Of a DNA stretch of 64,000 nucleotides, positions 18,475 through 58,235 are shown piece by piece. A model generated the notes under the pieces. That model was not told the DNA's origin. It saw nothing but the letters and a program-made list of their open reading frames with translations, and made no database searches. A program made the position numbers and the translations under genes. The stretch's first letter is position 1. The number at the start of each line of letters is the position of its first letter. This stretch comes from Pyropia yezoensis (Eukaryota; Rhodophyta; Bangiophyceae; Bangiales; Bangiaceae): NCBI GenBank assembly GCA_009829735.1, contig CM020619.1, positions 8,112,375 through 8,176,374 of the forward strand, written 5' to 3'.

Positions 18475-19045
18475 TGTAGCATCCCTGGCCCCGACTTGGC
18501 GCCGACCCGGGACTACAAGCAGAGGGCACCAGGTGCCAGAACACGCCCGCCGTGTGGTGATGGTTGGCGGCCGTGGCCCGTGCCCGGCACTGGGATGCGG
18601 TGGACTACGCTATCCACACGTGAGAGAGGGATTGCTGATGGGTTTTTGCATACTTGTGAGGGACTTGATTTGAGAGAATTTGAGTGTGAGATTAGTGAGT
18701 GGGAATAGAATTAGTAGTGATAGTGGCCCCCGACCTGACGAGGTTAGACTCGGGTCGGGGCCACTCGGGGTTATGGGGGGGCTACGTGGCCAACGTGCCG
18801 AGGCTCCCCCAGATGCACGTTAAGAGGGACAGCGAGGCGCCCTTGGCCCGCGCCCTCAGGAAAAAGACAACTGCGCGTTTGCTTTCCTCTTCCCCGTGTG
18901 CACTACCGTGCGTATCTGTTTGCTCTGCGAGCAGGCACGTGAGGCAACAGGCATACCATTCTCGTAGTTCCCCTTTCTGTGTTACCTGTCCCTTTCCCCC
19001 GAGGGATATTGACACGTGTCTGAGAGGATCGAGTTTTATACCACA
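18475..19045 (+). repeat. 5' LTR of Gypsy family B
   Basis: 571 bp, starting TGTAGCATCC and ending TTTTATACCACA. It is unrelated at sequence level to the family A LTR. Confidence 0.95.
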
Positions 19046-19049
19046 TATT

Positions 19050-19067
19050 TGGTGGAGCAGCAGGGGA
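19050..19067 (+). other. Primer-binding site, family B
   Basis: TGGTGGAGCAGCAGGGGA begins four bases after the 5' LTR and is identical to the site in family A. Confidence 0.82.
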
Positions 19068-19257
19068 TGATTGGAGTGTTTGAGAAGAGACATTTGGGAG
19101 CAGCGGTTGGGTTGTTCCTGTTCTGTCTTTTTCGGTGGTTTGGGAGTTATTTGCACCCGGTCACGGGAATCCTATTCCTGGCTCTCCAACCCCTCTCTTG
19201 TGGTCTGGCGATCTTTGGACACGCAGGCAACTGGACTGTGGCTGTCAAGAGACCAAC

Positions 19258-21018
19258 ATGGCTACCCTCCCTGGCACGACGGTGCCCGAAGGGGTAGACC
19301 CCGCGTCCCTTGACGCATCCCTGGTCACCGCGGGGGACGGTGCCCAACCCGGCGTTCTCCCTACGGGTGAAGCGGACCTGGGTGTGACATCCGGTAGCGG
19401 ACTGGAGTCCACAGGCGGCCAAGCACCACCTGCTCCCGTTCCTCCGGCTGTTCCTCCTGTGGGAGCCACCCCGGGGTCAACGGCGTTTGAGTCCGCTCGC
19501 AGCAGACGTCTCCCTCCTGTCGGTTCTACTCCTCAACCTCCAGGGATAGCCCCTGGTGTGTTTACTCCTGGACCCACACGTGGCAGTTGGGTGTATACAC
19601 CTCTTCCTGTGGGCACTAGCGATGCCAGAAGCACCGTTGTGACTGGTTCTACGGGTCTCCTTGAGATTTCGACTCCTGGGACCGGCCAAGCTTTTCCTCC
19701 CCTTGCATCCTATGGGGCGGGGAGCTCCAAGACAGGTAACCGGAGCAGCCGAAGGCGTCGGTGTCATCGCCGTCGCTCTAGCACCAGCGAGACCAGTTCC
19801 TCCAGCTCTGAGGAGGGATATGATTGGGATGCATCTCCAGGTCCCACCCGGCGCAGGCTAGTCGAGTTTGACTTCCCTGCCCACCAAGTGGGAGATGCCA
19901 CCCTGAACAAGGTCACGTATTGGGGTAACTACCGGCTGGAGAACCAAGACCAAGGTTACACCCGGAAAATGGCCAAGAAGATGGCGTCCCTGAACCGGCG
20001 AATGCAGCCGAGCTTCGGGGGACATCCTAAGTTTTCCGGGAAGAGACCGGCGCTTATCTTTGCCTTCCTGCGCCGGTTTGTCAAGGCATGCAATGACAAC
20101 GATGTGTCCGAGGGCAAGGCTCTCTACCTCCTGGTTAACTTCATGACCGGAGAAGCGGAACAGCGGTTTGCACAGGTTCTACCAGACTCTGCCGGACACA
20201 GTGTCGGACGTACCGTCGCGAGTTATCCGGACGCGGTCAACTGGCTCCTGTCCAACTACGCTGACGCGGACTCTCTGCGTAAAGCAGTCGGCAGGCTGAA
20301 CCGGGCAACCATGGAAAGACAAGAGACTCCAGAGGCGTTCGCCCGTCGTGTCCGGGAGATGAGCGATGCTTGTGGCAACCTTTACCCTGAGGACAGGCTC
20401 AAGATGATCTTCTCGGAAGGGCTTCCTGAATATCTTCAAGTGGATGCGGAGAACTACAACCAGGAACATCAAGAACATACCTCCCAGCAGTTGATGGCCT
20501 ACACCCAGGGCAAGTACCGGCAAGCCAGGGCCCTCCAAGCTCCCATGGTATCAACTCCCAAGCCGCTGTCGCGAGTTCGACCCGGACCCGACAAGTATAA
20601 GGGAGGTGATAGCCCTGTACCGGTACTCGCAGTTGGCGAGGCCTCACCCATGGGGTCAGGGGACAAGTGGGGCGGCTTCGTTTCCAAGGAGCAACCATCC
20701 CTGGTCGCCCCCAAGCAAGTCAAGAACCAGCGGTTCCGGTCTTGTTGGCTGTGCCAGAAGGAGGATCACATGTCCTACCAGTGCCCGACCATTCCCAAGG
20801 ACCTCCAGGAGAAACTCAAGCGTCAAGGACTGGTGTTTGCAAAGGCGGTCAACTGGGCTGACCGGCGAGCACCCTCCAAGATGGACCAGGCACAGGTACA
20901 CGCAATCCGAGTGGCAACCTTACAGAGCATCACGGAGGCTCTGGCAAGGGAAGCTCCTACGGACTTTGACCTGGAGACCGAAACCTCTAAGGAGTCCTCG
21001 GACCCGGGAAACGAGTAG
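19258..21018 (+). CDS. gag: Gypsy Gag protein, family B
   Basis: A 586-residue Gag starts at the ATG at 19258 (context CAACATGGCT) and ends in TAG. The N-terminal third is Pro/Gly/Ser-rich, followed by an Arg/Ser-rich patch. The capsid-like region (FLRRFVKACNDNDVSEG, AVNWLLSNYADAD, ARRVREMSDACGNLYP) aligns with family A Gag. A CCHC knuckle (CWLCQKEDHMSYQC) follows. The last codons CCG-GGA-AAC-GAG-TAG hold the slippery heptamer. The frame extends upstream only by a GTG at 19135 inside the leader, which I do not favour. Confidence 0.92.
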   Translation: MATLPGTTVPEGVDPASLDASLVTAGDGAQPGVLPTGEADLGVTSGSGLESTGGQAPPAPVPPAVPPVGATPGSTAFESARSRRLPPVGSTPQPPGIAPGVFTPGPTRGSWVYTPLPVGTSDARSTVVTGSTGLLEISTPGTGQAFPPLASYGAGSSKTGNRSSRRRRCHRRRSSTSETSSSSSEEGYDWDASPGPTRRRLVEFDFPAHQVGDATLNKVTYWGNYRLENQDQGYTRKMAKKMASLNRRMQPSFGGHPKFSGKRPALIFAFLRRFVKACNDNDVSEGKALYLLVNFMTGEAEQRFAQVLPDSAGHSVGRTVASYPDAVNWLLSNYADADSLRKAVGRLNRATMERQETPEAFARRVREMSDACGNLYPEDRLKMIFSEGLPEYLQVDAENYNQEHQEHTSQQLMAYTQGKYRQARALQAPMVSTPKPLSRVRPGPDKYKGGDSPVPVLAVGEASPMGSGDKWGGFVSKEQPSLVAPKQVKNQRFRSCWLCQKEDHMSYQCPTIPKDLQEKLKRQGLVFAKAVNWADRRAPSKMDQAQVHAIRVATLQSITEALAREAPTDFDLETETSKESSDPGNE

Positions 21019-21046
21019 GGCAGGCACTCTCCCCAAGTGTCTTCCC
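21006..21046 (+). promoter_or_regulatory. Predicted -1 frameshift signal, family B
   Basis: G-GGA-AAC at 21006-21012 in the gag frame is followed after five bases (21013-21017) by a potential stem at 21018-21046: about ten pairs including one G-U and one mismatch, with a 7-base loop. The -1 frame is open from the heptamer into pol with no stop and no ATG at the junction. Confidence 0.75.
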
Positions 21047-24000
21047 GAACCTCCAACGGCAGGGTACTTCTACCTGCTCCCCCTTTGCGTGCCGAGAGAA
21101 AGGACGGCGGTTACCTGCTCAACCGGTAGCCGCCTGGACACCCTGTTTGTTCAAGGGGACATTGCTCTTCCTGCGTAAAGAAAACCTCAAGATTAATGCT
21201 CGTATGCGTGTGGGGGATAGCCTCCCCCAAGCTGTTACGCCGGTGGTTGACACGGGAGCCGGACCAAGCGTCATCACTGAGAACCTGTTACCTCCGGGCT
21301 GGCGTCGACATGCCTGGAGAGCGCCTACCCGGACCCATATCGTCGACGCTTCGGGTCAAACCCTACGACCGCTTGGCCGTCTTCCTGTCGCCATCTATGT
21401 CAACAATGAACCAATGCTTTTTCCCTTTCTAGTAGTCAAGACCCTATCAGTCCCCCTCATCCTAGGCTGGGACTTCCAGAAGCAGCATGTCAAGAGCATC
21501 CTACCCGGAGAAGGGAAGGTCCAGTTCAACCATGGGTTTGTGTCACCGGTATTGGAGCATCTGGACGCCAAGGTTCGTGTAGCCAAGAGCAAGAGGGAAC
21601 GCATCCCACCCTCTACCTTGACTCTCTTCAAACCGGTGCTCCTACCTCCTCGCTCGGAGAGCAAGGTTCAAGTAACGACCCGGATTGCAGGTCAATGCCT
21701 GATCTACGGACGTAAGGGATTTCTGGCGAAACACCGGTTATACTTGGCCCACGGACATCACAAGAAGGTAGAAAGGCACACCCCGTTCCCGGTGCTCATC
21801 GTCAACGTGAGCCGGAAGCCAATAACCCTCGCCAAGGGCACCCGAGTTGGTACAGCAGAGCCTTACCGGGGATCCGCCCGTGCTATGAGCAAGGAAGACC
21901 TCCTGAACCTGCAACAAGAACTGGCATCCAACTTGACGGCCTTAGACGTACCTCCGAAACAAGAGCAGGCTGGCAGCGCTACTCCGAAACCCGAACAAGC
22001 ACCACCCGGGATGCCGAAGGTCAAGCGAGAAAATGTCCCTCTCGACTTGAAGGAGGCACTGGAGAAGCTTCTCCAGGAATATCGGCACCTGTGGTCGGGA
22101 GAGCTGGGCAAGATGGACGCCACTCTACACCGGATTCAACTCAAGCCGGAAGCTAAGCCAGTGCACATGCAACCATATCGGGCCGGACCTCATCGCCGGG
22201 ATGAGATTGAGAAGCAGGTTAACAAGATGCTCAAGATGGATGTTATCGAGCCGTCTGATGGCGAGTGGGCTTTCCCGGTGGTAGTCGTCCCGAAAACCGG
22301 CGGTCACTTCCGTTTCTGCGTTGACTACCGGCGCCTGAACGAGATGACAGTCAAGGACGTATACCCGATACCCCGGATGGATGATTGCCTCGAGTTTCTT
22401 GGTGATGCCACCCTCTTATCGACGCTGGATTGTAATGCCGGTTACTGGCAGATCCCTTTGGCTGACGAAGACAAGGACAAGACCACCTTCACGTGCCACC
22501 TGGGACTATTCCGGTGCAAGCGTCTTCCTTTTGGTCTCACCAATGCTCCGGCAACCTTCCAAAGAGCCATCGACATCATCCTGTCCGGGCTAAGGTGGAG
22601 AACATGTTTGGTCTACCTGGACGACATTATCGTTTTCTCCAAGACCCCAGCGGACCACCTGGAGCACCTTCGGGAGGTCCTGGCCCTCCTGTCCAAGGCT
22701 GGAGTTACCCTCAAGGCCGAGAAGTGCCACCTGTTTGAGACTGAGGTGGAGTATCTGGGGCACGTGCTGAGTCCGGGGGAGCTCCGAGTCAATGAGAAGA
22801 ACATCAAGGCCCTCCGGCATGCACGGCAACCCAAAACCCAGACGGAACTCAAGAGCTTCCTGGGTATGTGCAACGTCTATCGCCGGTTCGTATGGGACTA
22901 TGCCCTGATTGCCCGGCCATTGACCAAGCTTACCAGCAAGAAGCTTCCCGCACAACTCCCGGTGTTCGACGAGAAGCAGACCGCGGCCTTCGAAGAGCTC
23001 AAGAAGCGCCTGACCACCACTCCAGTACTGGCGTTACCCAAGCGGGAGGGCCAGTTTGTTCTGGAGACTGATGCCTGTGGCGTCCAGGTGGGGTGCTCAC
23101 TACTCCAGCAGCAACCTGATGGGCACTTCCTCCCGATAGGCTACTACAGTCGCGTCTTGACTCCAGCCGAGAAGAACTATTCCACGACGGAGCGCGAGTG
23201 CTTGGCAGTCGTCTGGGCTTGCTTCCTGTTACGGCCATATCTTGAAGGACAAAAGTTCCTCATCCGGACGGATCACGCCAGTCTAAGGTGGCTGCTATGC
23301 ATGGACAGCAGTCAAGGAAGGGTCGCCCGGTGGCGCCTACGCCTTTCGGAGTTCAAGTACACGGTGTGCACCAGAGCAGGGAGGGAGCACCACTGCGCCG
23401 ACACCATGTCCCGGCTGGAGACTCCTGCAGCCGATACCGGTCCTATCCCGGAGGAAATACCTTGCTTCATCCTCCCGAATGTCGGACGTGGCTGGCATGC
23501 TCCCCTGTATGAGACACCTGAAGCTGATCAACCGGTGACTATTCACCGGATGCTGGAGGCACAACTGACGGATCCTCAATGCTTGGAGCTTCGCCACCAG
23601 ATGGACCTGAACCGGAACAGTCGTTTCTCCGAGTCTACGGACGGACTCCTAGTACGGGTGTCACCCTTCGATGGGGCCACTCAAGTCTACGTACCCCGGG
23701 GCCTACGAGCTGACATCCTACGCCTGGAGCACTCGTCTCCCCAGGCCGGACATCCTGGTATCAATCGGATGTATGCTTCCATGAGACGACACGATTACTG
23801 GGAAACCATGGCCAGTGACGTCCATAAGTACCTGGAGGCTTGTGTGTCGTGTGCAAGGAACCGGTTGTCCCAGAGGAAGAAGACTTCTAAGCTACGCCTA
23901 TTCCCTGCGGCGGAGCCCTTTGGAAGCTTAAGCATGGACATCCTGGGGCCCCTACCTGAAACATCCAGTGGCAACATATACCTGCTCATCATATGTGACC

Positions 24001-25106
24001 GGTTCTCCAAGTTCACTCGAGCAATCCCGCTGAGGACCATCACGGCTCTGGATGTCACGTCAGCCTTCTGCGAGTACTGGATAGCTGCCTACGGCCCTCC
24101 AGACTCCGTCTTAACCGACAACGGTCCCCATTTTGCATCCCTGTTCTTCCAAGGAGTCAGTGACCTGATGGGCATCAAGAACTTGTACACCACGACGTAC
24201 CACCCGCAAACGATCGGCCAGGTGGAACGATTCAACCGGACCCTAGTAGACATGCTACGGCACTACGTGGAGGAGCACCAAGAAGACTGGGACGAGCTCC
24301 TGGCTGTCCTCACTCTAGCCTACAACTCCCGAGTTCACCGGACAACGGGGGTCGCTCCACTCGACTTTGTCACCCCAAGGCGGCTGACCAACTTCTCCCT
24401 GGAAAGAATACCAGATGGTCTCCAGCCTGCACTGAAGTCAGGTCCCAAGGCAAAGGATGAGTTCCTGGAACAACTGAAGCTCCTGCTCCCAAGAGTCAAG
24501 GAGTCAATCTCGAAGACACAGGAGCGATACAAGCGGGGCTATGACAAGGGCGTTCGGGAAAAGAACAAAGAACTGGGTGGTGGCGACTGGGTTTTTGTGG
24601 ACAACCATAGCAAGACCCGGGGGAAGCTGGACTCGAAGACGGATGGACCTCATGAGATCCTGAATGCGGACGGTTGGACCTTTCTTCTAGACGTGGATGG
24701 CTCCCCGTACCGCGTGAGCAGCGACCATGTCACCCGAGCTCCACCGCCAAGCCAACGGGACTTGACCCGGCGCAAGCGGGCCGCAGTACCCTGGCTATCC
24801 CAAGAAGAAGGTCGGGAATATGTCTACGTCAAGTTTGTGGACCATGCCTGGAGAGACGGACGCCTGTACCTGCGAGTACGCTGGTTCGGTTTTAACCCGG
24901 CAGATGATACCTGGGAACCCTCAAACCGGCTACCCATCGCGGATGTCTGTGCCTACACGCGACGGAACGGGATAGAGGGCACTCCAGTGGCCAGAGCCGG
25001 CAAGATTCTGGAGTCGGACTCGGAGGAGGACCAAGAGGATGGGGCCAACCAAGACCCTCGGGACGAGCCGAGTTCATCCGCAACGGATGCGGAACAAGAG
25101 GATTGA
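21006..25106 (+). CDS. pol: Gypsy Pol polyprotein, family B (made by -1 frameshift)
   Basis: The pol frame is continuous from the heptamer at 21006 to TAG/TGA-type termination at 25106. An ATG is absent at its start, so synthesis as a Gag-Pol fusion is inferred. Domains in order: aspartic protease (VVDTGAGPS), reverse transcriptase with YLDD at 22614-22625, RNase H (ETDACG, TERECLAVVWA, RTDHASL), integrase with H-H-C-C zinc site (EHSSPQAGHPG, CVSCARN), catalytic D-D-E (MDILGP near 23935, LTDNGP near 24112, ERFNRT near 24224), and a C-terminal chromodomain at about 24814-24940 (RVRWFGFNPADDTWEP). The frame is intact. The chromodomain places it with chromoviruses. Confidence 0.93.
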   Translation, partial: GKRVGQALSPSVFPNLQRQGTSTCSPFACREKGRRLPAQPVAAWTPCLFKGTLLFLRKENLKINARMRVGDSLPQAVTPVVDTGAGPSVITENLLPPGWRRHAWRAPTRTHIVDASGQTLRPLGRLPVAIYVNNEPMLFPFLVVKTLSVPLILGWDFQKQHVKSILPGEGKVQFNHGFVSPVLEHLDAKVRVAKSKRERIPPSTLTLFKPVLLPPRSESKVQVTTRIAGQCLIYGRKGFLAKHRLYLAHGHHKKVERHTPFPVLIVNVSRKPITLAKGTRVGTAEPYRGSARAMSKEDLLNLQQELASNLTALDVPPKQEQAGSATPKPEQAPPGMPKVKRENVPLDLKEALEKLLQEYRHLWSGELGKMDATLHRIQLKPEAKPVHMQPYRAGPHRRDEIEKQVNKMLKMDVIEPSDGEWAFPVVVVPKTGGHFRFCVDYRRLNEMTVKDVYPIPRMDDCLEFLGDATLLSTLDCNAGYWQIPLADEDKDKTTFTCHLGLFRCKRLPFGLTNAPATFQRAIDIILSGLRWRTCLVYLDDIIVFSKTPADHLEHLREVLALLSKAGVTLKAEKCHLFETEVEYLGHVLSPGELRVNEKNIKALRHARQPKTQTELKSFLGMCNVYRRFVWDYALIARPLTKLTSKKLPAQLPVFDEKQTAAFEELKKRLTTTPVLALPKREGQFVLETDACGVQVGCSLLQQQPDGHFLPIGYYSRVLTPAEKNYSTTERECLAVVWACFLLRPYLEGQKFLIRTDHASLRWLLCMDSSQGRVARWRLRLSEFKYTVCTRAGREHHCADTMSRLETPAADTGPIPEEIPCFILPNVGRGWHAPLYETPEADQPVTIHRMLEAQLTDPQCLELRHQMDLNRNSRFSESTDGLLVRVSPFDGATQVYVPRGLRADILRLEHSSPQAGHPGINRMYASMRRHDYWETMASDVHKYLEACVSCARNRLSQRKKTSKLRLFPAAEPFGSLSMDILGPLPETSSGNIYLLIICDRFSKFTRAIPLRTITALDVTSAFCEYWIAAYGPPDSVLTDNGPHFASLFFQGVSDLMGIKNLYTTTYHPQTIGQVERFNRTLVDMLRHYVEEHQEDWDELLAVLTLAYNSRVHRTTGVAPLDFVTPRRLTNFSLERIPDGLQPALKSGPKAKDEFLEQLKLLLPRVKESISKTQERYKRGYDKGVREKNKELGGGDWVFVDNHSKTRGKLDSKTDGPHEILNADGWTFLLDVDGSPYRVSSDHVTRAPPPSQRDLTRRKRAAVPWLSQEEGREYVYVKFVDHAWRDGRLYLRVRWFGFNPADDTWEPSNRLPIADVCAYTRRNGIEGTPVARAGKILESDSEEDQEDGANQDPRDEPSSSATDAEQED

Positions 25107-25251
25107 GAAGAAGGGAACGGGTATATCAAGGAGAACACGCAATACAAGCATGGAACAATCAAGGAAAACAAGCACCCGCTCGGGCAACCCTTCTCTCCGC
25201 CTCTTCCCTCCTCGCTTCTCCCAAGACCCTCACCCTCCTTGCCTCCAACTA

Positions 25252-27367
25252 CTACTCCCGGTGCGGACGCTGAGCCGCGGGAGTGTCCTCCAGCGCTGCC
25301 TCCGCGGCACGACGGGAACCGGAGGAAGACGGGATGACGTAGTGCGGTGGACGCGGTGCATCCCGGTATGACGCCATCGGAGTAGTACCGGTAGTTGCCG
25401 GGGGCTCCCGCTCATCCAGATATGCCCGTCGGCGCCCCGGGAAGCCAGTGAAGGTTTCTGACCACTGCTGGGCCAAGCCATGCCGCGTCAAGGTCGCCAG
25501 AAGTTCGCCAACCACCGGGCTGTTCGACATCTGGCCGCTGTCCGCGCAAGCAAACACCCGGTCAACCACGTTGTTGAAGACGCTGGCGTAAATGCCCAGC
25601 ACCAGGGAAGACCCGACGCCCTCAACCTGCACCGGAAAACGACCCAGCTGGCCTTCAATCATACCGACGTCGTACTGGTCGCATGTCGGGCCACCTTGGT
25701 TCAGGTACCAGTCCGGCACCCGGAAGCAGGTAAGGCGCAGAGTCGGCGCCGGAATCTCGAACCGCCCCGAGGATGACACCACCGGACGGTCCACAACGGC
25801 CCCCGAAACCGGAGTACCCAACTCCAGCGGAGGCACAGCGCCGCCGGCGTTGGAAGAAGGCGTCCGAGGCGGAGCGGCCGGAGTGGAAGGCGACCGCACG
25901 GTCACCCCCAGACTCGCCGCAGACAGGCGCGGTGCCGGAGGAGCTTGAAGTACCGGCACAGCCGGAACAGGGCGTGAACGCGCCGGCGACGGTTCAGGCG
26001 AGGCCACCGGGGCGACAGGTGCAACAGGAGGAAGCGGAGCCGCCGCAGACGCCTGACCGACCGCCGCGGCCCATCCCGACTCCTGCACCGGCGGCCCAAC
26101 TGGCAGAAGATCAAGGGCGGCCGGGGCAGGAAAGCTACCTAGCTGCGGCCACGCCGGAAGCGGCGTCGCCAGCTGCACCTTGGCCGGAGAAGACTGGTAG
26201 ACCACCTGCGCCCAACCGAAGCCATCTTGACGCGGGCGGTTCTGGTCGGCAATCGCGTTCAAGAAGTTCCGGTCATGCACCGGCACCAGACGCCGGAAGT
26301 AAATCATCGCCTGGAAGAGCCCTTTGTACTCTTCGTCCTGGCTGCACAGGAAGTCGACGGTCAACTTGTCGACAATCCAGACCATCAGGAGGTCAGGGAG
26401 AAACCAAAGCCGGTTGGACACCAAGACCTCGTGAAGCCAGTGGTTGGCCGCCAAGACTGTCATCTCGGACGTGTACATCATGTACGGGGTCGAGTGGAAG
26501 AAGCCCTTGATCGACGCCTGAGTCAAGGCGTCCAAGAAGTACCAGGTGAAGGGGATGCTGGAAGGAGCAAACCCGACCGGGATCTCGACTTCCTGCTGCT
26601 GCGGGATGACCTTGGGGTAGTACGCCGCCCGGTTAGCCTTATCCAGCTTCCAGAACTCCTGATGGTTGCAGCTCACGAGGGTCACGCTGACGGCCGCGTC
26701 GCTCGCCTTGCTCCCGTGCCGGTGACAACTTGGAGTACTTCCGGGTCAGGAAAGGCGGCTCCAGAGCGACCATGCTCGGACGGGGGTCGCAGTTCAGGCT
26801 CCCCGACCCCTTGAGCGCCTCGTCCCAGACCTTGAGCGCCCGGTGGACGTACCCTTCCTCCTCCGGCCACCGGAGAGCGGACGCGGACACGCGACGCTCG
26901 GTCAAGGGCAGATCCAGCACCAGCGCGAAGGGGAGATCCTCCAGACGAGCAACCCAAGAGGAACCCGAGAAGCTCTGGGAGCGGTCCTGTGCCAGGCGCA
27001 TCTGGTCCGCCGTGTGAAGACGAGCCTTATCCATCTCTGTCAAGACCCCGCGCTGGAGTTCCTTGCGCCAGAGGTCCAAGCAATTCTGCTGGCACTGGGC
27101 CGCGCCGGCGTTGCCGACCACCGTGGAGTAACGCCGGGCCGCCAGAGGGTCCTGCCCAAGAAGCATCTCCGGGAGACCCACCGGGGGGGTCTCGACCGGG
27201 TGCATCACAGAAGCCGGGGGAAAGCGATCCGTCCCCGCCGTGGCGACCGGCGCCGACATCGACACCCGAGGAACCGGAGGCAGGAGAGGGGCGCGACTAC
27301 CCGAGTTCTCCTCCGCAACACTCGCCGCCGGAACCACGGGCCCAGCTTGGATCTCGGAACTGGACAT
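25252..27367 (-). pseudogene. Antisense ORF protein of Gypsy family B (one frameshift)
   Basis: Opposite to gag-pol, between pol and the 3' LTR, two abutting frames (26639-27367 and 25252-26685) make one protein of about 700 residues broken by a single indel near 26690-26740. It stops 146 bp past the pol stop, so the two genes converge. Start chosen at the ATG at 27367; the frame also extends into the LTR. It is related to the antisense protein of family A: shared motifs are LVS...EF...YYPK, EV-P-GF, WL-EV and RP--DG in the same order. The C-terminal part is Pro/Ala-rich. I recognise no known domain and do not assign a function. Confidence 0.7.
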
Positions 27368-27537
27368 GACGTCCAGACTCCGGGGGAACGCGAGGGCCAA
27401 GGTGAAGGAGAGAAGGGGGGCAGAGAACCGGAGCAGGTGATCGTGACCAGGGTGAAGACGCTCGACCTCGGCACCGGTGTGGACGTGCTCGAAGCTGTGC
27501 ACGGTGGCACCTGGTTCGGCCCGAGGACGTGCCGGAC

Positions 27538-27551
27538 TAGGGAGGGAGCTA
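27538..27551 (+). other. Polypurine tract, family B
   Basis: TAGGGAGGGAGCTA directly precedes the 3' LTR and would prime plus-strand synthesis. Confidence 0.75.
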
Positions 27552-28122
27552 TGTAGCATCCCTGGCCCCGACTTGGCGCCGACCCGGGACTACATCCAGA
27601 GGGCACCAGGTGCCAGGACACGCCCGCCGTGTGGTGATGGTTGGCGGCCGTGGCCCGTGCCCGGCACTGGGATGCGGTGGACTACGCTATCCACCCGTGA
27701 GAGAGGGATTGCTGATGGGTTTTTGCATACTTGTGAGGGACTTGATTTGAGAGAATTTGAGTGTGAGATTAGTGAGTGGGAATAGAATTAGTAGTGATAG
27801 TGGCCCCCGACCTGACGAGGTTAGACTCGGGTCGGGGCCACTCGGGGTTATGGGGGGGCTACCTGGCCAACGTGCCGAGGCTCCCCCAGATGCACCTTAA
27901 GAGGGACAGCGAGGCGCCCTTGGCCCGCGCCCTCAGGAAAAAGACAACTGCGCGTTTGCTTGCCTCTTCCCCGTGTGCACTACCGTGCGTATCTGTTTGC
28001 TCTGCGAGCAGGCACGTGAGGCAACAGGCATACCATTCTCGTAGTTCCCCTTTCTGTGTTACCTGTCCCTTTCCCCCGAGGGATATTGACACGTGTCTGA
28101 GAGGATCGAGTTTTATACCACA
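27552..28122 (+). repeat. 3' LTR of Gypsy family B
   Basis: 571 bp, about 99 percent identical to the 5' LTR and followed by the CCACC target duplication. Confidence 0.95.
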
Positions 28123-49440: not shown

Positions 49441-49445
49441 TGCCA

Positions 49446-49914
49446 TGTGGCGAAAACCACTTGCACACACGGCACCCAAGTTGGGGTGGTGTACAAGGGC
49501 TGCCTCCCGTGTCGGGGGAACCGGAAGAAGTGCAAGTCGCACACACTCTGTCCCTGTTGTGGGGCAAACCCCCCACGGACAAACAAGAGGATGGTGTGTG
49601 GTCCAACAGTTTCTTGGTCGGGACGGGGACGCAGGGCCAAGCCCCGCTGTCCCTCCCCTTATCCCCCCAGGGTCCACTCGGAATCTCGCCACTCAGAATC
49701 TCCCACCCCAGCACCTGCCCACCGGGCCACACGAAAATTCAAGACGATAAATGCAGAAAACCCTCAAATCCAAGTTGGATTTACTACTAAGCTAACTATC
49801 CCTAACTTAGGGAATATGGACCCAAATGCAGGGGGAGGAACGGATCAGGCAAGTGGCCTGCCGCCCCTTGCATGGCACGTGTTGCCCCCCTACCTGGGGG
49901 TCAATACTGCCACA
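49446..49914 (-). repeat. 3' LTR of Gypsy A1
   Basis: 469 bp, TGTGGC...GCCACA; on the minus strand this is the downstream LTR. Confidence 0.95.
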
Positions 49915-49928
49915 CTCCCCTCTCCTCA
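49915..49928 (-). other. Polypurine tract, Gypsy A1
   Basis: Minus-strand TGAGGAGAGGGGAG abuts the 3' LTR. Confidence 0.8.
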
Positions 49929-50253
49929 GTTCCGACCGACCCGGTCGGCCCTGTGAGGGGGTGCGTAAACGCACGTCTCGGCGTTGGGGGGCGCGACTTG
50001 CTGTCCCCCATCGAGTACGTAACGCGGATGTGGAGGCGGTCACGTTGACCGCCCCTCTCCTCAAGCTTGCCCACTCGGCAGCTTGCTCTTCTCGGTTCAC
50101 ACTTCACCATCACCACCACTTCCCCTTCACCTTCCACGGGGCCGCCCCACGCCGGGGAGGCCACCCGTCTACCCCAGATCCGAGTCCCCCTCAACTCGAG
50201 GCGGGTCTCGTGCCGCTGTAGCCAGGGCGTCTCTCCCCAACTTGAGGAGAGCC

Positions 50254-52197
50254 ATGGCGACCCCGGGAGTGGAGACAGACTCTCTTGACGAACGTATGGA
50301 GGACACCTCCTACGGTGCAGCGCCCGCCGGGACTTCCGGCGGGGGCTCCGCGATTGCTCCGGGGGATGGGACTCCCGCGTCACCCGGCTTTGGGTTGACG
50401 GCGGGATCTCCCCCGGAGGCGGGACAAGTTGTCCCGCGTGAGGCCTTGGGGCGGTGGTTTTACCCCGCTTGGCCTCTATATGAGGAGGGGTTGACTGTTC
50501 TTCGCTGTGGCCGACTTGGCGCAGCGATGGGTCGGGTATGGGACCGCCTACGGGAGAAGTATCCCCGTAGGGTCGGGTTCCCAGCCGGCTTCAGGAAGGA
50601 CCAGTTTGCCTTCCTGGACGACGAGGAGGTCGAAGACGTACAGCGGGCAAAGGCCATGGTGGACCGCGGGGGAACTATCCCGGGTCCCGGCGACTTGCCG
50701 ACCTTTACTTGGGACGCGGTGGCAACTCGCCCCCCGTACCTTCACGAGGCCGATCCGCACACTCATCACTTTGATGTGCGGATGGAGAAGGACTTCCGGC
50801 GAGGTCCCTCCTTGGTGACCTCGGCTCAACTTGAGTTTCCTCAGCAGTCTGCTGCCAGTAAGGAGCAGTACTATCCGAAGAAGCCCGAGTGGTGGCCTCA
50901 AGTTGAGGTCCCCTACGGGTTCCCGGCGTTGCTGCCACGGTTGCTTGACCACTTCGGCTCCGTCATGTTGACGGCTGGCCCTGATCACCTGGTGTGGGCC
51001 ATGTTGGCCACCCAGTGGCTCCTCGAGGTCATGTCGACCTGGGTGTCTTGTGTTCAGCGGCGGGGGATGCTCTGGCATCTCCCCCTCCGGCTTATCCAAG
51101 GTTTGGAACAGCTCACCCCTCAGCTAGTTGCTGAGGGGTGCTCGTCAGGACAACTCACTCTACTTGAGGAGATGCTCCGCCTTCACAAGTTTATCGAGTG
51201 GGAGAGCATTGAGCACAAGTTGCGCCGCCCCACTCGTGGGCCCAAGGACGATGGCGCACTTTGCCAGTTCGTGTGGGTCGCTCGTGAACTTCACGACGGC
51301 CGTGTGGTCCTACGAGAGGGGTTGGGCATCGGGGATTACCCGTATGCCCCGGGGGTGGATCGCCACACTGCGCCACCCCCGGACAAGCCCATAGTTATGG
51401 CCGTGCCCTCATATGATGACCATATGACTCAACCTACTGGGGGGGCCCCAAGTCGGGGTCGCAGTTACACCCGGGTCCCGCCACCTCGGCGTGCCCCTCC
51501 GCTTCCTCCTGTCCCCATCCAGCCGCACGGGAACATCCCGATTAGCGTGGCCGTTGAGTGGTCCACCCGGGTGTCCCGCAACCTGGGGGCCACCCTCCTG
51601 ACGGTATACCCCAAGTTGGTGTTGCCGCCCACGCCTCTAACCTCAGAGATGATGATCACCACGTTGGTGCGAACCATTTCCTGGTTGGCCGCGTCGACCG
51701 CAACCCTACAGAGTTCCGAGACTCCTCAACTTGAGGAGCGCGTTCGTACAGCAGTGGCGACCGCGAGTTGCGAGTCGGTGGCGGAGTTTATGACGGCCGA
51801 GTTGGCTCGCATTGGGGCTATTATGTCCCAGCCAGCCCCACTTGGGCGTGGCAAACGTCGTGCGAGCCGGGCATACTCGCCTCCTCGCCGTCGTCGCCGA
51901 CACTCACGGCGCTCTCCCTCCGTGTCGGAAGACGAGTTGTCTTACCCCGTCTCGGAGTCCTCGACTCCGTCAGAGTCGGAGTCGGTCCGGCGTCTGCGTC
52001 GAAAACTTGCGCGCAAGACCAAGCAGAAGAGTAGCCACGGTCGGCGCCACTTGCGCGACCGTGAGGGGCGCGACGGTTCCGACTTGGAGCCGCCGCCCCC
52101 TCCGACTGGTGGGGAGCGTTATCGCCGTGGGTCTCGCCGCTCGCCTCTACGTGAGGGCGAGGGCCGTGGGGTGGGAGAGTCTAGCATGCATGCCTAG
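50254..52197 (+). CDS. Antisense ORF protein of Gypsy family A
   Basis: A 647-residue protein is read opposite to gag-pol, starting 340 bp inside the 3' LTR at an ATG in a strong context (GAGCCATGGCG). The frame extends upstream only through a TTG at 50083. It stops 112 bp before the pol stop, so the genes converge. The N-terminus is Gly/Pro/Ser-rich, the middle (about residues 65-360) looks globular, and the tail is Arg/Ser-rich and acidic (RRRRRHSRRSPSVSEDE), resembling nucleic-acid-binding or nuclear tails. The middle aligns with the antisense product of family B (25252-27367). No known family recognised. Transcription would have to come from the 3' LTR or internal sequence on the opposite strand. 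Confidence 0.82.
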   Translation: MATPGVETDSLDERMEDTSYGAAPAGTSGGGSAIAPGDGTPASPGFGLTAGSPPEAGQVVPREALGRWFYPAWPLYEEGLTVLRCGRLGAAMGRVWDRLREKYPRRVGFPAGFRKDQFAFLDDEEVEDVQRAKAMVDRGGTIPGPGDLPTFTWDAVATRPPYLHEADPHTHHFDVRMEKDFRRGPSLVTSAQLEFPQQSAASKEQYYPKKPEWWPQVEVPYGFPALLPRLLDHFGSVMLTAGPDHLVWAMLATQWLLEVMSTWVSCVQRRGMLWHLPLRLIQGLEQLTPQLVAEGCSSGQLTLLEEMLRLHKFIEWESIEHKLRRPTRGPKDDGALCQFVWVARELHDGRVVLREGLGIGDYPYAPGVDRHTAPPPDKPIVMAVPSYDDHMTQPTGGAPSRGRSYTRVPPPRRAPPLPPVPIQPHGNIPISVAVEWSTRVSRNLGATLLTVYPKLVLPPTPLTSEMMITTLVRTISWLAASTATLQSSETPQLEERVRTAVATASCESVAEFMTAELARIGAIMSQPAPLGRGKRRASRAYSPPRRRRRHSRRSPSVSEDELSYPVSESSTPSESESVRRLRRKLARKTKQKSSHGRRHLRDREGRDGSDLEPPPPPTGGERYRRGSRRSPLREGEGRGVGESSMHA

Positions 52198-52308
52198 TTG
52201 GCAGCTGCCTTTGTTGTGAGAGTGTGAGGGTTAGGGCTGTAGTTAGAAGCCACTCTGCGTACCACTTCGATTTGAAGCACTCTCTTGGCACTGTTGCTCG
52301 GCCTTCCC

Positions 52309-55300
52309 TCACGTTGAGGGAGGGCTGTTAGGGTCTATCTCATTCCGGGGACAGTACGCCCGGACCTTCTCAGCGGGAAGGTCCTCCACATACTCCCACG
52401 TATCATCCTTGGCATTGTAGCCAAACCAACGCACCCTCAACATGAGGCGGTCAGTGTCCTCATCCCATCCGTGGTCGATGAACTTATCGAACACGTACTC
52501 CTGCGGGCCCTGTTTTGCTGCAGGCAGTGAGGGGAGGCGCCACGCTTCCAAAGCACGCGCCCAAGCTGGGTTGCCTGCAGGCGGTGGTGCAACTTTGACC
52601 ACGTCCTGTCCGTTCACTGTGCGGACCCCATCGTCACTTTCGATGGTGAAGCGCCGCCCATCAGTACGAAGGACCTGGTACGGCCCCTTCGTCTGGAATA
52701 CCAACTTACCCCCAGTTGGGGTGTGTGAGTGGACCAATACCCAGTCACCCTGCTCGGGGACATGCTTGGCGTTGCGTACCTTTTTGTCAAAGGTACGCTT
52801 GTAGCGCTTTTGTGCTTTGTCCATCTCAGCCCTGACTTTAGGGATGAGGTTTTCAAGCCTAGCGGCGAACTCCGCCTTACTCTCAGTAGGAGTAGGCGTA
52901 CTGCCACCATCCTCTCTAGTTGGGAGCGACCGCCGCACAGCAATAGACCGCACGCGACGGGGGGTCACAAAAGCGAGGGGTACTTCCCCGGTAGATGAGT
53001 GAACCTGTGAATTGTAGGCAGTAGTAAGGATAGAAATGTATTGGTCCCACGTCTTCACGTGCTCACTCACATAGTGGCGCTGCTGCCTAACAATAGTTTT
53101 GTTGAAGCGCTCCACCTGCCCATTAGTTTGTGGGTGGTAGGGGGTGGCATAGTTTGCCTTAACCCCCAACATATCCAGCACTCCCTGAAACAGTACAGAC
53201 GCAAATTGCGGTCCATTGTCCGATAGTGTACTATCTGGGATGCCATACGCAGCAACCCAGTGATCTAGGAAGGCTGACACGACCGACATGGCCGGGATCT
53301 CTGCCAGTGGGATCGCTCGCGTAAGTTTCGTGAAGCGGTCACAGATGACCAGGAGGTACTGGTTGCCCTCCTCGGTCACTGGCAGTGGCCCCAGGATGTC
53401 CATCGCCAACGCGGCGAAGGGCTCCTTGGCCGGGAACAATAGCATAGCCGTACTAGGCCGCCGTTCCATCAGACGGTTCTGTGCACAACTTGTGCAGGCA
53501 GCCACCCAACTGTAGATGTCCACCACCATGGACGGCCAGTAGTACCTGGTCCTCAGGGTCTGGTACAGTTTACTAGACCCCAGGTGTCCACCCGTGGGAG
53601 CGTTGTGCTCCCTCTCAAGGATACTGCCCTTGAGAGACGCGGGGACGACAAGTTGCTCGGTCCCCTGGAATACCCCCCTCCTCATGAGGAGGCCATCGTC
53701 TCCCAGGAAGAACCACGTCTCCGCCACTGTATCCAGTGTATCCCTCTGCGACTTGCAGAAGGGATCCTCGGCCTGGGCCTTCACCACCTCGTCCAGGGAC
53801 AGGGGCAAGTACTTCTTGTTCCCTGGCGCCTCGGGGTTCAACGCCTGGCCCGAGCGCGTGACTACCCCCACGATGGGGATGTCCTCATCGACTGGGTTAG
53901 TGTCCAGCCCCTCGGTAGGTACCCGAGAGAGGCCGTCAGCAAGGGCATGTTGCCTGCCAGGTCGGTACTCAATATCAAAGTTGAAGGGTGCCAGTCGCAC
54001 CCTCCACCGATTGAGACGAGTTTTCGTACAGTCCGTCTTAAAGATGAACTGCAACGCGCGGTGGTCACAGCGGATGAGGAACTTCTCACCCTCCAGGTAG
54101 TGACGAAGTGACGTCACCGCCCACACCACTGCGAGTCCTTCCAACTCGGTGACTCCGTAGTTCTTCTCGGCCGAGTTCAGCCCCTTGCTGAAATATCCCA
54201 CCGGCAAGTACTCCTTGTCCGGCTGCTGCTGAAGCAACACACAACCAAGTTGGTCGTAGCTAGCGTCCACATCCAGGATGTAGTGGCCTCCCAACCTGGG
54301 AATAGCCAGGATAGGGGGCTTCAGCAGAAGGTCCCGAAGAGTCTCAAAGGATTCCTGCTCCACCCGACTTGGGGGAGGCAGGTTCTTCGGGAGCGTTGAG
54401 CTCACTAACTCATTCAACGGCTTCGCCACCTTGGCGAAGCTCTTGGTGAAACGTCGGTACACGTTACACATCCCGAGGAAGCTCCTCATCTGGGTCTGCG
54501 TCCGGGGGTACTGAGCCTTACGGATGGCCCTCAAGTTCTTCTCGTTGACACTGAGACGCCGCGGACGGACAACATGTCCCAAGTATTCCACCTCTTGAGT
54601 GAAGAGGTGGCACTTACTCGCCTTCAGTGACACACCGGCGTCAGCAAGTAGCTTGAACACCTGGCCAAGATGGCCAATGTGTTCCTCCGGACTTCGGGAG
54701 AACACAATGATATCGTCTAGGTACACAAGACAGATCTGCCACCGTACTCCGGCCAGAATCACGTCCATAGCGCGCTGGAAAGTTGCCGGCGCGTTACACA
54801 GACCAAACGGTAGACGCTTGCACTGGTAGGCACCACAGTGACAGGTAAAGGTAGTTTTATGCCTGTCCTCCGGGGCAATGGGAATTCGCCAGTACCCCGC
54901 GTTACAGTCCAGGGTAGAGAACAGGTTCGCCTCCCCCAGAGAGTCCAGACAGTCGTCCATCCTAGGTAGGGGATAACTGTCCTTCATCGTGCTCTCGTTG
55001 AGCTTACGGTAGTCGATACAGAACCGGGGGGTCCCATCAACTTTGGGGACGATAAACACCGGACTCGCCCACTCGGCGTTGCTGGCCTCGATCACATCGA
55101 GGGCCTCCATGCGAGCAACTTGCTCCTTAACGAGGGCCCTTGAACGGGGCTCTCCCCTATACGGTTGTTGGCGTATAGGGGGTGCACCGGGCTTCAACTC
55201 GATCCGGTGTTGGGTAGCTCTCATGAGTCCCAATTGACCATCCCACAACTTGTGATATTGGTCCAAGAGGCGTTCAACTTGAACCCTCAACCTGGGTGGG

Positions 55301-56292
55301 ACACCCTCCATGTTCACATGGGGCCGAGGAGAGGCGGCCGACTTGGCTTGATGCTTCTCCTTTCCGGACTTCGGGTCGCTACTTGCGCCCGCGTTGAGGG
55401 TGACCGCTACTACCGGTCCCTCGTGTTGGTCGATATAGCCGAACTTGGCTCCCGACTTGAAGTACTGGGGCGACGAGCTCAGGTTCATCAGCTGGATCCT
55501 CCACGGGACTCCGGCTTTGGAGTCCATCGTGCCAAGGGCAACATGCACTTGGTGCTTGCGAGCAAGACGGGGGTAAGGGTGCACCAACCCGTTCCCCGTA
55601 TAATCAGTTACAACATCAACGTGCGCCACCGAGTTGGGGGGCAACGTGACTTTACGGGCTAAACGCAGGGTAGCAGTAAAACCTTCCCTCACAGAGCAAA
55701 CAGGCTTCGACTGTGAGACTGTCACAGGAGCCACAGACTTTCCCTTACCAAGGATGGGGATAGTCTCCCCATTCATCAACTTGACCCAGTACTCAGGGCC
55801 ACAAATCAAAGGCACTTGTGTAACAACATAAGGGGTACCCAGAAGCAGGGGTACCGATATATTCTCGCCTACTCCATAGGTCACGTCGACCTCATGGGTC
55901 CCCAACCTATTTGGTAGGGTCACGGCACCAACAATGGGAAGTACCCCACCATTGATATCAATCAGATGGTCAGCCTTAGACTTCCAGCGTTGGAGCTTCA
56001 CCCCCTTTGGTAATAGCGACTTGCGTATCAAGGAGGCTCCTGACCCGGTATCAAGTACGATACGGGCACAACAGGCGCGGCCGGGGGCAAGTTGCACCCG
56101 TCCAGCCACCTGGAAGTTCTCACCCGTCAGCACCGCGATGACCCGACGTGGGTTTACGTTCTTGGGGAGTCCGACCCGAGGTGGGCGGACTCCCTTAGGT
56201 CGCCGCAGTATCCGGCACGGTTGGTTCGTCCTCTTGGCCCACTTGGCCGAGGCTGCCGTTGTGAGCTTCGGACGGCCAGCTCCAACGGTCAT
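52309..56292 (-). CDS. pol: Gypsy Pol polyprotein, family A copy A1
   Basis: The 1327-residue Pol is intact. Protease D81 in LDTGSGAS; reverse transcriptase about 395-575 with YLDD at 524-527; RNase H with D676, E716 and D743; integrase zinc site H896, H903, C933, C936; integrase D965, D1025, E1061; a GPY/F-like KGPYQVL at about 1202-1208; and a C-terminal chromodomain about 1264-1312 (RVRWFGYNAKDDTWEY), expected to steer integration to marked chromatin. The ATG at 56292 overlaps the gag stop as ATGA. The frame is also entered by a -1 slip at 56295-56301. Confidence 0.95.
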   Translation of the reverse strand: MTVGAGRPKLTTAASAKWAKRTNQPCRILRRPKGVRPPRVGLPKNVNPRRVIAVLTGENFQVAGRVQLAPGRACCARIVLDTGSGASLIRKSLLPKGVKLQRWKSKADHLIDINGGVLPIVGAVTLPNRLGTHEVDVTYGVGENISVPLLLGTPYVVTQVPLICGPEYWVKLMNGETIPILGKGKSVAPVTVSQSKPVCSVREGFTATLRLARKVTLPPNSVAHVDVVTDYTGNGLVHPYPRLARKHQVHVALGTMDSKAGVPWRIQLMNLSSSPQYFKSGAKFGYIDQHEGPVVAVTLNAGASSDPKSGKEKHQAKSAASPRPHVNMEGVPPRLRVQVERLLDQYHKLWDGQLGLMRATQHRIELKPGAPPIRQQPYRGEPRSRALVKEQVARMEALDVIEASNAEWASPVFIVPKVDGTPRFCIDYRKLNESTMKDSYPLPRMDDCLDSLGEANLFSTLDCNAGYWRIPIAPEDRHKTTFTCHCGAYQCKRLPFGLCNAPATFQRAMDVILAGVRWQICLVYLDDIIVFSRSPEEHIGHLGQVFKLLADAGVSLKASKCHLFTQEVEYLGHVVRPRRLSVNEKNLRAIRKAQYPRTQTQMRSFLGMCNVYRRFTKSFAKVAKPLNELVSSTLPKNLPPPSRVEQESFETLRDLLLKPPILAIPRLGGHYILDVDASYDQLGCVLLQQQPDKEYLPVGYFSKGLNSAEKNYGVTELEGLAVVWAVTSLRHYLEGEKFLIRCDHRALQFIFKTDCTKTRLNRWRVRLAPFNFDIEYRPGRQHALADGLSRVPTEGLDTNPVDEDIPIVGVVTRSGQALNPEAPGNKKYLPLSLDEVVKAQAEDPFCKSQRDTLDTVAETWFFLGDDGLLMRRGVFQGTEQLVVPASLKGSILEREHNAPTGGHLGSSKLYQTLRTRYYWPSMVVDIYSWVAACTSCAQNRLMERRPSTAMLLFPAKEPFAALAMDILGPLPVTEEGNQYLLVICDRFTKLTRAIPLAEIPAMSVVSAFLDHWVAAYGIPDSTLSDNGPQFASVLFQGVLDMLGVKANYATPYHPQTNGQVERFNKTIVRQQRHYVSEHVKTWDQYISILTTAYNSQVHSSTGEVPLAFVTPRRVRSIAVRRSLPTREDGGSTPTPTESKAEFAARLENLIPKVRAEMDKAQKRYKRTFDKKVRNAKHVPEQGDWVLVHSHTPTGGKLVFQTKGPYQVLRTDGRRFTIESDDGVRTVNGQDVVKVAPPPAGNPAWARALEAWRLPSLPAAKQGPQEYVFDKFIDHGWDEDTDRLMLRVRWFGYNAKDDTWEYVEDLPAEKVRAYCPRNEIDPNSPPST

Positions 56293-56301
56293 TCGTTTCC
56301 C
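56256..56301 (-). promoter_or_regulatory. Predicted -1 frameshift signal, Gypsy A1
   Basis: Slippery G-GGA-AAC at 56295-56301, six-base spacer GAATGA, then a hairpin at 56256-56288: CCGTTGGAGCT pairs with AGCTC-A-CAACGG (11 pairs, one bulged A) around a 10-base loop. Spacing and heptamer fit known eukaryotic -1 sites. Confidence 0.75.
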
Positions 56302-58235
56302 GCCGACTTGGCGTCCGAATCTGAGGGCGGGGAGGAAGACGACGAGTCCGAGGACGACGTGTCCGCCTCCTCCGCCGAGGGTGTGGCGACCGCGACGACC
56401 GGTCGAGACCCACCCTCGCGGCGTGAACGTACTTCGTTCGTAGCCGACTTCTTACTCGCATTCCTAACAAGTTGTTGGATGCGTTTACTCAACTTGGGGC
56501 AATCATATGCCCAGTGTCCATCGGAGTTGCAGTTCCAACACCGATTGTCTGTTCCGGGAGGGGTCTTCCCGACTGGGGAAGACGAAGAGGTACCCTGGGA
56601 AGTTCCCACGGAAGCTACCACCCTCTCCTTGCGGATTCGGCGTGCCTCTCTCAACTCTCTGGCTCGGCGCGCCTCCTCCCGTTCCTTGGCCAACTCGGCT
56701 TGACGCTTCTGGCGTTGTTCCTCCCGCAACTTGCGGTAGGCCTCGCCTCTGCGGTAGGCGAACCTAGCCAACTCGGCCAGGGTCGCCCGGGCAGTGTTAT
56801 GCTCCCGGGTCTCCATCCGGACTGACCAATGGAGTCCCTCCACAAACCGACTCTTCACCACAGCTTGTGGATGAAGAAACCCACAAAGATTGTTGAGCTT
56901 ACGGACTCGCTCCGCAAAGGACAACTCGTCCTCCGCCTCTTCCTGATGGGCTTGCGTAAACTCCTCGACTTGAGAAGCCAGCGCCGCTTCATCAACCATG
57001 GCCCTCAACAACCAGTTGACGAGCTCCAAATAGGACGTCACCTCCCCAGCGCCTCCACTTGAGGAGCTGGGCATGACGGACATAAGTTCTGTCCGCAGGT
57101 CTCCCTTCGTAAACTCCTGTAGCATGTAAAAAGCCATGCCTTCGCTTATGGCATTGTCGTCACAGGCTTTTGTGAAACGACGTAGAAACTCAAAGACACG
57201 GAGGGGGGGAGTTCCATCCCACTCCGCTTTGTGCCCAAAAGAATGAAGTGCATTCTTCTTGGCACGACCCATGGCTCGGGCCTGGACAGGACCATACACC
57301 ACCGACTTGTTGTGGAGGGCGTAGGTCTCGCAGTCAAAGATCCCCTGGTAGACCGGGTTGGCTACCTGGATCTTGGGCGGCACCTCACGTTGAGGGAACA
57401 GCCGCTGTGGCACTGGGGTAAGTTGACCCTCAGCGCCTGTAGTCTGGTGCGGCGAGCTTGGTGTCGCCGCCGGCGTTTCCGAGGGGAACTCCCCCGTGAA
57501 GGGCGTACGCCCCACGGAGAATGGTGCGGCCCCCACGTTGGGAGTCACAGGGGTCGCCCCCTGTTCGGGGCGCCCCGGAATAGGCGTCAGGAGAGATTCC
57601 CCCTGCGCCTGCGGGCTCGAAAGCCCCAATCCGGTCTGGACATTAAGGCCATCTGGCAAACTCGCCACAATCTGATTCAGAATAGTATTCGTCATCGTGA
57701 CCACCAGGTCCGGCAAAGTCTGCCGCAACACATTGGTCGCCTCCCGACGGACAGTTTCCGCGAGGAGTGGATTGACGACTCCAGTTGAGTCTCGGTCCGC
57801 CTCCGGGAGTCCACCTGAGGGGTAATCACGTTCCTCAGGGGTCTCAACCGGGGGCATGGGCGCGAGCCCATCGCCGACCAACGGAGGTCCGCCGTCCTCC
57901 GAAAGCCTAGTTGGCGACGGCTCCAAGCCAAAGTTGGCTCCAACCCGAGTGGAACCCGCGGGGACAGTCCTCACCCCTTGGGACGTTCCCGTTGAGTATA
58001 CCACACGGTGGCCAGACTTCGGCCCACCCACATCAGAAGTGTCACCCGAGTGAACTCCCGACTGAGTCGGGGTGGCCTGTTGCCCGCCCGCACTTCCAGT
58101 CCTGCTGGCTTGAGGGACCTCTAGTCCCTCTGCGACCCCAGGTAAACCCACCTGTGTCTCACCAGTATTCAAAGGCACTGAAGTACGTGCGTCACCCGTG
58201 TACTCCCCGGACGACGGGGGGTCCGAGCTAGCCAT
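56289..58235 (-). CDS. gag: Gypsy Gag protein, family A copy A1
   Basis: A 648-residue Gag starting at the ATG at 58235, 100 bases after the primer-binding site. Proline-rich N-terminal half, capsid-like middle (FLRRFTKACDDNA), charged Glu/Arg helix and a CCHC knuckle CWNCNSDGHWAYDC, then a Ser/Asp tail ending GNE. It differs from copy A0 at scattered residues, mostly in the Pro/Thr-rich segment around 57420-57600. Confidence 0.95.
   Translation of the reverse strand: MASSDPPSSGEYTGDARTSVPLNTGETQVGLPGVAEGLEVPQASRTGSAGGQQATPTQSGVHSGDTSDVGGPKSGHRVVYSTGTSQGVRTVPAGSTRVGANFGLEPSPTRLSEDGGPPLVGDGLAPMPPVETPEERDYPSGGLPEADRDSTGVVNPLLAETVRREATNVLRQTLPDLVVTMTNTILNQIVASLPDGLNVQTGLGLSSPQAQGESLLTPIPGRPEQGATPVTPNVGAAPFSVGRTPFTGEFPSETPAATPSSPHQTTGAEGQLTPVPQRLFPQREVPPKIQVANPVYQGIFDCETYALHNKSVVYGPVQARAMGRAKKNALHSFGHKAEWDGTPPLRVFEFLRRFTKACDDNAISEGMAFYMLQEFTKGDLRTELMSVMPSSSSGGAGEVTSYLELVNWLLRAMVDEAALASQVEEFTQAHQEEAEDELSFAERVRKLNNLCGFLHPQAVVKSRFVEGLHWSVRMETREHNTARATLAELARFAYRRGEAYRKLREEQRQKRQAELAKEREEARRARELREARRIRKERVVASVGTSQGTSSSSPVGKTPPGTDNRCWNCNSDGHWAYDCPKLSKRIQQLVRNASKKSATNEVRSRREGGSRPVVAVATPSAEEADTSSSDSSSSSPPSDSDAKSAGNE

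What the first reader, a model, noticed from the sequence alone, without database searches (positions are those of the whole stretch)
25252..27367. Antisense protein is shared by two divergent Gypsy families
The antisense frame of family B (25252-27367) and that of family A (50254-52197) align by eye in their middle: LV[ST]...EF...YYPK, then EV-P-GF, WL-EV, a Leu-rich stretch and RP--DG. LTRs of the two families are unrelated, so the similarity is not from recent duplication. Retention of position, orientation and motif order argues for an old, selected gene of this lineage: a third retrotransposon gene, read backwards.
Basis: partly seen in the sequence, partly recalled or inferred. Interest (0 to 1): 0.88.

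Follow-up and report, generated by a model that had tools for sequence, protein, structure and literature searches.

The report
Backward gene in red-algal retrotransposons
Several old families of jumping genes in what looks like the nori seaweed carry the same extra protein gene, written on the opposite strand to their other genes and kept by natural selection; backward genes in this place are known in flowering plants and fungi, but no named protein family that we could search matches this one.

Summary
The antisense frames of families B and A are homologous: profile-profile core score 47.6 against a maximum of 23.8 in 200 column-shuffled controls; local core score 92 against a maximum of 66 in 1000 shuffles. 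The host is taken to be the red alga Pyropia yezoensis, from chromosome sizes.

It is a selected protein gene. Between subfamilies B and E dN/dS is 0.23; 1000 neutral re-deals never fell below 0.53, and no stop appears where about 7 are expected. In 60 of 60 fetched copies, 30 per family, it lies opposite to pol and converges with it. A third divergent family, F, has it in the same place. It follows pol: A-F 37% and 64%, A-B 23% and 45%. One 3' stretch each from families C and D lacks it. Six relatives are in public protein data.

The kind is known: antisense additional ORFs between pol and 3' LTR (Grande, RIRE2, Retand, Boty; PMC7264820). This protein matches no Pfam family, TRP28 included. 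Expression and function are untested; an accessory or regulatory role is inferred.

The parts
18475..28122 (+). Family B Gypsy element, gag-pol on +; LTRs 18475-19045 and 27552-28122 (98.8% identical), 5-bp target duplication CCACC
20991..25106 (+). Family B pol frame (RT, RNase H, integrase; weak protease and chromodomain matches)
25252..27367 (-). Family B antisense gene; in this copy split into two frames near 26.68 kb; convergent with pol, 145 bases between the two frames
26080..26679 (-). Part of the conserved core of the family B antisense protein (EF..YYPK, VEIP.GF, LW.LP)
49445..58823 (-). Family A Gypsy element, gag-pol on -; LTRs 49445-49914 and 58354-58823 (99.4% identical)
52309..56451 (-). 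Family A pol frame, identified by 45% identity to family B pol
50254..52197 (+). Family A antisense gene, 647 aa, open; convergent with pol, 111 bases between the two frames; basic Arg/Ser-rich C-terminus
50536..51378 (+). Core of the family A antisense protein, 37% identical to family F over 289 residues

Best explanation
A clade of Ty3/Gypsy retrotransposons in this genome (families A, B, E, F) carries a third gene between pol and the 3' LTR, on the strand opposite to gag-pol. It encodes a protein of about 640-705 aa: a core of roughly 200-290 residues with Pro/Ser-rich flanks and, in family A, a basic Arg/Ser-rich tail. Shown: homology across families, position and convergent orientation in the copies read, purifying selection on the protein. 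Inferred: it is transcribed from an antisense promoter in or beside the 3' LTR; it is translated; it acts, perhaps in the nucleus, as an accessory or regulatory protein of the element's own cycle, like the antisense gene of maize Grande. I put about 0.95 on 'selected protein gene of this lineage' and about 0.4 on 'nuclear regulator or cofactor'. The confidence given is for the gene statement with an unspecified accessory role.
For: Homology A-B. F joins both: F-A BLASTP E 6e-43; F-B core score 108, shuffle maximum 57 of 1000. Selection, B-E: NG86 0.25 over 671 codons, lowest (0.08) in the 80-codon window holding YYPK; of the five other frames four gave 1.0-1.5 and the one whose third positions coincide with those of this frame gave 0.33; null test. 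Within families, shared polymorphisms in 30 copies each: A 113 synonymous, 27 non-synonymous, 0 stops; B 53, 37, 0. Orientation; of 26 pairs of an RNase H match and a B-type antisense match 1.5-5 kb downstream, 25 lie on opposite strands. Same order of relatedness for pol and antisense protein. Matches with stops inside: 11 of 86 B places, 5 of 62 A places, 5 of 72 places found with P0004.
Against: No transcript, promoter or protein evidence was available. No Pfam or PDB-sequence match names a function. AlphaFold models were poor: mean pLDDT 40 and 31. The Arg/Ser-rich tail that hints at the nucleus is in A; B and F show no such basic stretch. E and F rest on one copy each. The 60 copies were fetched because they match the ORF, best-scoring first, which biases against amino-acid changes and says nothing of copies without it.
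Confidence: 0.85

Rival explanations
1. The open frames are by-products of a GC-rich genome and base composition; the resemblance is chance or shared composition.
For: The window is GC-rich (0.56-0.69 in the stretches sampled) and long spurious frames occur on both strands. Pro-rich tails give some background similarity.
Against: Cores without the Pro-rich tails beat every shuffle; dN/dS far below the neutral re-deal and no stops; in-register homology across three families and outside proteins.
Confidence: 0.01
2. The antisense RNA, not the protein, is what matters: it pairs with the genomic RNA and feeds or evades silencing.
For: Convergent arrangement with 111-145 bases between the frames of A, F and B could make overlapping transcripts; antisense RNA roles are discussed for other elements in PMC7264820.
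Against: Selection acts on codons and amino acids, strongest in the core. An RNA role could exist in addition.
Confidence: 0.04
3. A captured host or foreign gene that rides along without serving the element.
For: Origin unknown; families C and D lack it in the one stretch read of each, so it was gained or lost at least once.
Against: Purifying selection between B and E, and retention through the A-B-F splits in step with pol. Host copies outside elements were not sought.
Confidence: 0.05
4. Mechanistic variant: it is a counter-defence protein that blocks host silencing of the element, rather than a cofactor or self-limiting regulator.
For: Faster divergence than pol and somewhat more than gag (A-B 23%, 45%, 29%), as expected for a protein in conflict with the host; overlapping transcripts could invite silencing (inference).
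Against: No domain or functional evidence; fast divergence is also usual for gag-like and accessory proteins.
Confidence: 0.2

Closest known systems
Antisense additional ORFs between pol and 3' LTR (aORF-3R): maize Grande gene23, rice RIRE2, PvRetro13, Boty of Botrytis
   Same: Position between pol and 3' LTR, antisense orientation, many copies, homologous across related families (PMC7264820, text parts 1 and 2 of 3 read)
   Different: Host is taken to be a red alga; protein without a Pfam match; codon-level selection test here. Sequence comparison with gene23 or Boty proteins was not made: no such sequences were at hand.
Retand lineage with TRP28 / Transposase_28 (PF04195) antisense ORFs
   Same: Same position and orientation; characteristic of a whole Gypsy lineage (PMC11963269, passages read)
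   Different: TRP28 profile finds nothing in this genome or in these proteins. The paper calls Retand non-chromovirus and reports it from eudicots and Liliopsida; B pol here ends in a weak, below cut-off chromodomain match
Antisense accessory genes of deltaretroviruses (HBZ type)
   Same: Protein coded on the strand opposite to gag-pol (named in the PMC11963269 passages)
   Different: No sequence relation tested; an analogy only

Membership tests
aORF-3R class of LTR retrotransposons | ORF lies between pol and the 3' LTR | tested here: met
   A and B in the window. F and E: next to the pol end; their LTRs were not identified
aORF-3R class of LTR retrotransposons | Antisense to gag-pol | tested here: met
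   60 of 60 fetched A and B copies opposite; F; E by its pol end and ORF strand
aORF-3R class of LTR retrotransposons | Present in most copies of the family | tested here: inconclusive
   At least 86 B and 62 A places carry it, 72 more were found with P0004 (none of the 72 lies within 3 kb of one of the 62), but copies without it were not counted
aORF-3R class of LTR retrotransposons | Protein conserved like other element proteins | tested here: met
   B-E dN/dS 0.23; A-B identity 23% against gag 29% and pol 45%
aORF-3R class of LTR retrotransposons | Transcribed from its own antisense promoter (reported for Grande) | not testable with these tools
   No RNA data
Retand / TRP28 (PF04195) | TRP28 domain in the antisense protein | tested here: not met
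   No match at E 10 in five proteins or in the whole genome (the control rang only in E. coli, below cut-off, so sensitivity on a true positive was not shown)
Ty3/Gypsy | RT, RNase H, then integrase in pol | tested here: met
   Family B pol; A pol by homology to it
Ty3/Gypsy | Zinc-knuckle gag | tested here: met
   Family A gag over cut-off, E 1e-5; family B gag below cut-off, E 0.019, but homologous to A gag
Env-like sense ORF | Sense orientation and transmembrane segment | tested here: not met
   Antisense; highest 19-residue hydropathy 1.2-1.5 in A, B and F
Second Gag copy | Profile similarity to the element's own Gag | tested here: not met
   hhalign probabilities 0.03 and 0.34 percent

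The most novel reading that the evidence does not exclude
A previously undescribed protein family defines a lineage of red-algal Gypsy elements in which a needed third gene is expressed backwards from the 3' LTR; antisense accessory genes were thus acquired independently in plants, fungi and red algae, pointing to a general need in the Gypsy life cycle that a sense gene cannot meet.
Probability: 0.4. Interest if true: 0.8.

Novelty: new variant of a known kind. Interest (0 to 1): 0.62.

Why it matters
What antisense genes of LTR retrotransposons do is an open question (PMC7264820). Here is a case with three divergent families, more than 200 genomic places and clear selection on the protein, in a lineage far from flowering plants. 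It gives conserved residues to test, suggests that the arrangement is not peculiar to Retand- and Grande-like elements of plants or to Boty, and offers a marker gene for one clade of elements in a genome whose repeats are dominated by LTR retrotransposons (PMC7423979, passage read). Repeat masking before gene prediction would hide it.

Tried and rejected
Rejected: chance ORF; second Gag; TRP28; Env-like. Led nowhere: Pfam on the antisense proteins, none over cut-off (one sub-threshold DUF6525 match, E 0.11, to the N-terminal piece of B, ignored); PDB sequences with profile A3, none; viral contigs with P0004, 3 pattern matches, none confirmed; two AlphaFold jobs, mean pLDDT 40.3 and 31.3, too low for a fold search, which I did not run. 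could say nothing on A and F: none of the places given (A first 34 of 62, F-type first 44 of 72) paired with the 150 RNase H matches listed; for B it used all 86 places and the first 124 rows.

Results against or weakening: phmmer of A against B alone is marginal; P0004 against B alone is only E 0.008; singletons also show a ratio below 1 (A 0.40, B 0.67), which fits the sampling of best-scoring copies; the pol controls gave shared ratios of 0.36 (A, 4 shared stops) and 0.16 (B, 1 shared stop), so the antisense gene looks no less constrained than pol in A and a little less in B (0.08 and 0.25); 3 of 30 B copies have frame-breaking gaps in the antisense ORF, 0 of 30 A copies. One of 26 RNase H pairs lay on the same strand. 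The E antisense frame ends earlier than B's. Each protein search scored only about 8000 candidates.

Full report
What was checked. Both frames exist.

Host. The window lies at 8112375-8176374 of contig C2 in a genome of 107.5 Mb in 11 contigs; the three contigs that bear the fetched loci are 43.6, 34.3 and 29.4 Mb long. The published Pyropia yezoensis scaffolds are 43.6, 34.3 and 29.4 Mbp, with a genome of about 108 Mbp and 65% GC (PMC7423979, passages read). I take the host to be this red alga; no gene-based test was made.

Elements. Family B spans 18475-28122 with LTRs 98.8% identical and a 5-bp target duplication; family A spans 49445-58823 with LTRs 99.4% identical. Gag has a zinc-knuckle match, over the cut-off in A and below it in B; B pol has RT, RNase H and integrase domains and a weak chromodomain match. 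A pol is 45% identical to B pol over 1291 aa. A partial family A copy lies at 1-4777.

Is the similarity real? BLASTP gives E 6e-7 for the pair. With the Pro-rich tails removed the local score is 92, against a mean of 38 and a maximum of 66 in 1000 shuffles (69 in 1000 windowed shuffles); A against E gives 93 against 68 and 75. A profile of A, F, P0006, P0004, P0001 against a profile of B, E, P0005, P0003, P0002 gives hhalign probability 83-86 and E 5e-6 to 9e-6; the core score is 47.6 against a maximum of 23.8 in 200 column shuffles.

A third and fourth family. A search of the genome for RNase H gave 150 scored places. Three families or subfamilies other than A and the window's B were sampled by stretches of 2.0-2.6 kb beyond pol, one copy each. 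E, close to B, has the ORF at 82% identity. The stretches of C and D do not contain a relative: tblastn with the A, B and F cores finds none at E 1, while the same queries find E and F. A search with the JGI protein P0004 found 72 places at 32-35% identity, none within 3 kb of any of the 62 A places. One was read: family F, whose antisense protein is 37% identical to A over 289 residues and 24% to B; F-B core score 108 against a shuffle maximum of 57 of 1000. I treat the other 71 as F-type without having read them. F's pol lies on the other strand, converging, with 128 bases between the frames; the gap is 111 in A and 145 in B. A search with P0003 shows B-type relatives at 57-68% identity among the places listed, so B has further subfamilies.

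Does it follow pol? Pol identity is A-F 64%, A-B 45%, B-F 45% (those with F over about 360 residues of the integrase end), with D at 27-32% in the integrase. The antisense protein gives A-F 37%, A-B 23%, B-F 24%. Gag gives A-B 29%. The order of relatedness is the same, and the antisense protein changes fastest. Descent within the clade is the simplest reading; D, without the gene in the stretch read, lies outside A, B and F. C was not placed.

Is it selected? B and E differ at 299 sites over 671 codons; dN/dS is 0.25 by counting and 0.21 by YN00; it falls to 0.08 in the 80 codons around EF..YYPK and is highest, 0.72, at the N-terminus. Re-dealing the same base changes at random over 651 codons gave a mean of 0.84 and a minimum of 0.53 in 1000 trials, with 7.1 stops on average; the observed values are 0.23 and none. 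E was picked by its RNase H and pol frame, not by this gene. Within families, shared variants are mostly synonymous: A 113 to 27, B 53 to 37, no shared stops; these copies were the top scorers, so the figure is biased downwards. Orientation was opposite to pol in 30 of 30 A and 30 of 30 B copies, with the distance between the two ends the same to a base (118 in A; 151-152 in B, measured between last matched residues).

Outside this genome. A set of 5.8 billion proteins was searched three times, about 8000 candidates scored each time. Six proteins matched: P0001 96% and P0006 65% to A; P0004 35% to A; P0002 98%, P0005 83% and P0003 56% to B. The source tags are jgi (P0004), eukprot (P0005), ena (P0002) and lgn (the rest); none carries a functional name. 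P0001 and P0002 may be from the same species. The 56-65% relatives suggest that both the A and the B branch exist in another genome; species are not given, so this is inference.

What it may do. No domain is recognised by Pfam and no PDB sequence matches. The low-confidence models are mostly helical in the core. Family A ends in a basic Arg/Ser-rich stretch that resembles a nuclear localisation signal by eye; B and F show none. By analogy with Grande, whose antisense protein is nuclear and has its own promoter (PMC7264820, parts read), I favour an accessory regulatory protein made from an antisense transcript. That step is inference. Counter-defence against silencing is the main alternative.

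What is known. Antisense ORFs between pol and the 3' LTR are reviewed for plants and for Boty of Botrytis (PMC7264820). In Retand elements 97% of clusters carry TRP28 antisense ORFs, a domain that the author finds only in flowering plants (PMC11963269, passages read). TRP28 finds no match here. Among the listings returned for red-algal or Pyropia elements and for antisense ORFs I saw no title or abstract that describes such a gene in a red alga; most of these papers were not opened, and subscription journals are mostly outside the library. I therefore call it a new variant of a known kind.

Noticed in passing
19049-19067 and 58335-58353: Families A and B share the same 19 bases just inside the 5' LTR, TTGGTGGAGCAGCAGGGGA, probably one primer-binding site; the tRNA was not identified.
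   Followed up: partly
1-4777: Partial second copy of family A, 97.4% identical to 54048-58824, cut by the window edge.
   Followed up: no
10886-11348: Apparent solo LTR of family A type, about 91-92% identical to the A LTRs.
   Followed up: no
46421-47647: Open 408-aa DNA-transposon gene on the + strand, Plant_tran / DDE_Tnp_4 (E 1e-45).
   Followed up: partly
41522-43387: 621-aa frame on the - strand with a DDE_Tnp_1_7 match, E 5e-15; piggyBac-like by recall.
   Followed up: partly
15661-17424: 587-aa frame on the - strand with a weak match to the Plavaka transposase profile, below its cut-off.
   Followed up: no
11389-12555 and 32618-33273: Direct tandem repeat arrays; those at 32618-33273 also give long low-complexity frames on both strands.
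   Followed up: no
L062, L063: The 3' stretches of two other Gypsy families (pol frames 1186 and 1255 aa) hold closely similar segments by eye although they lack the antisense gene.
   Followed up: no
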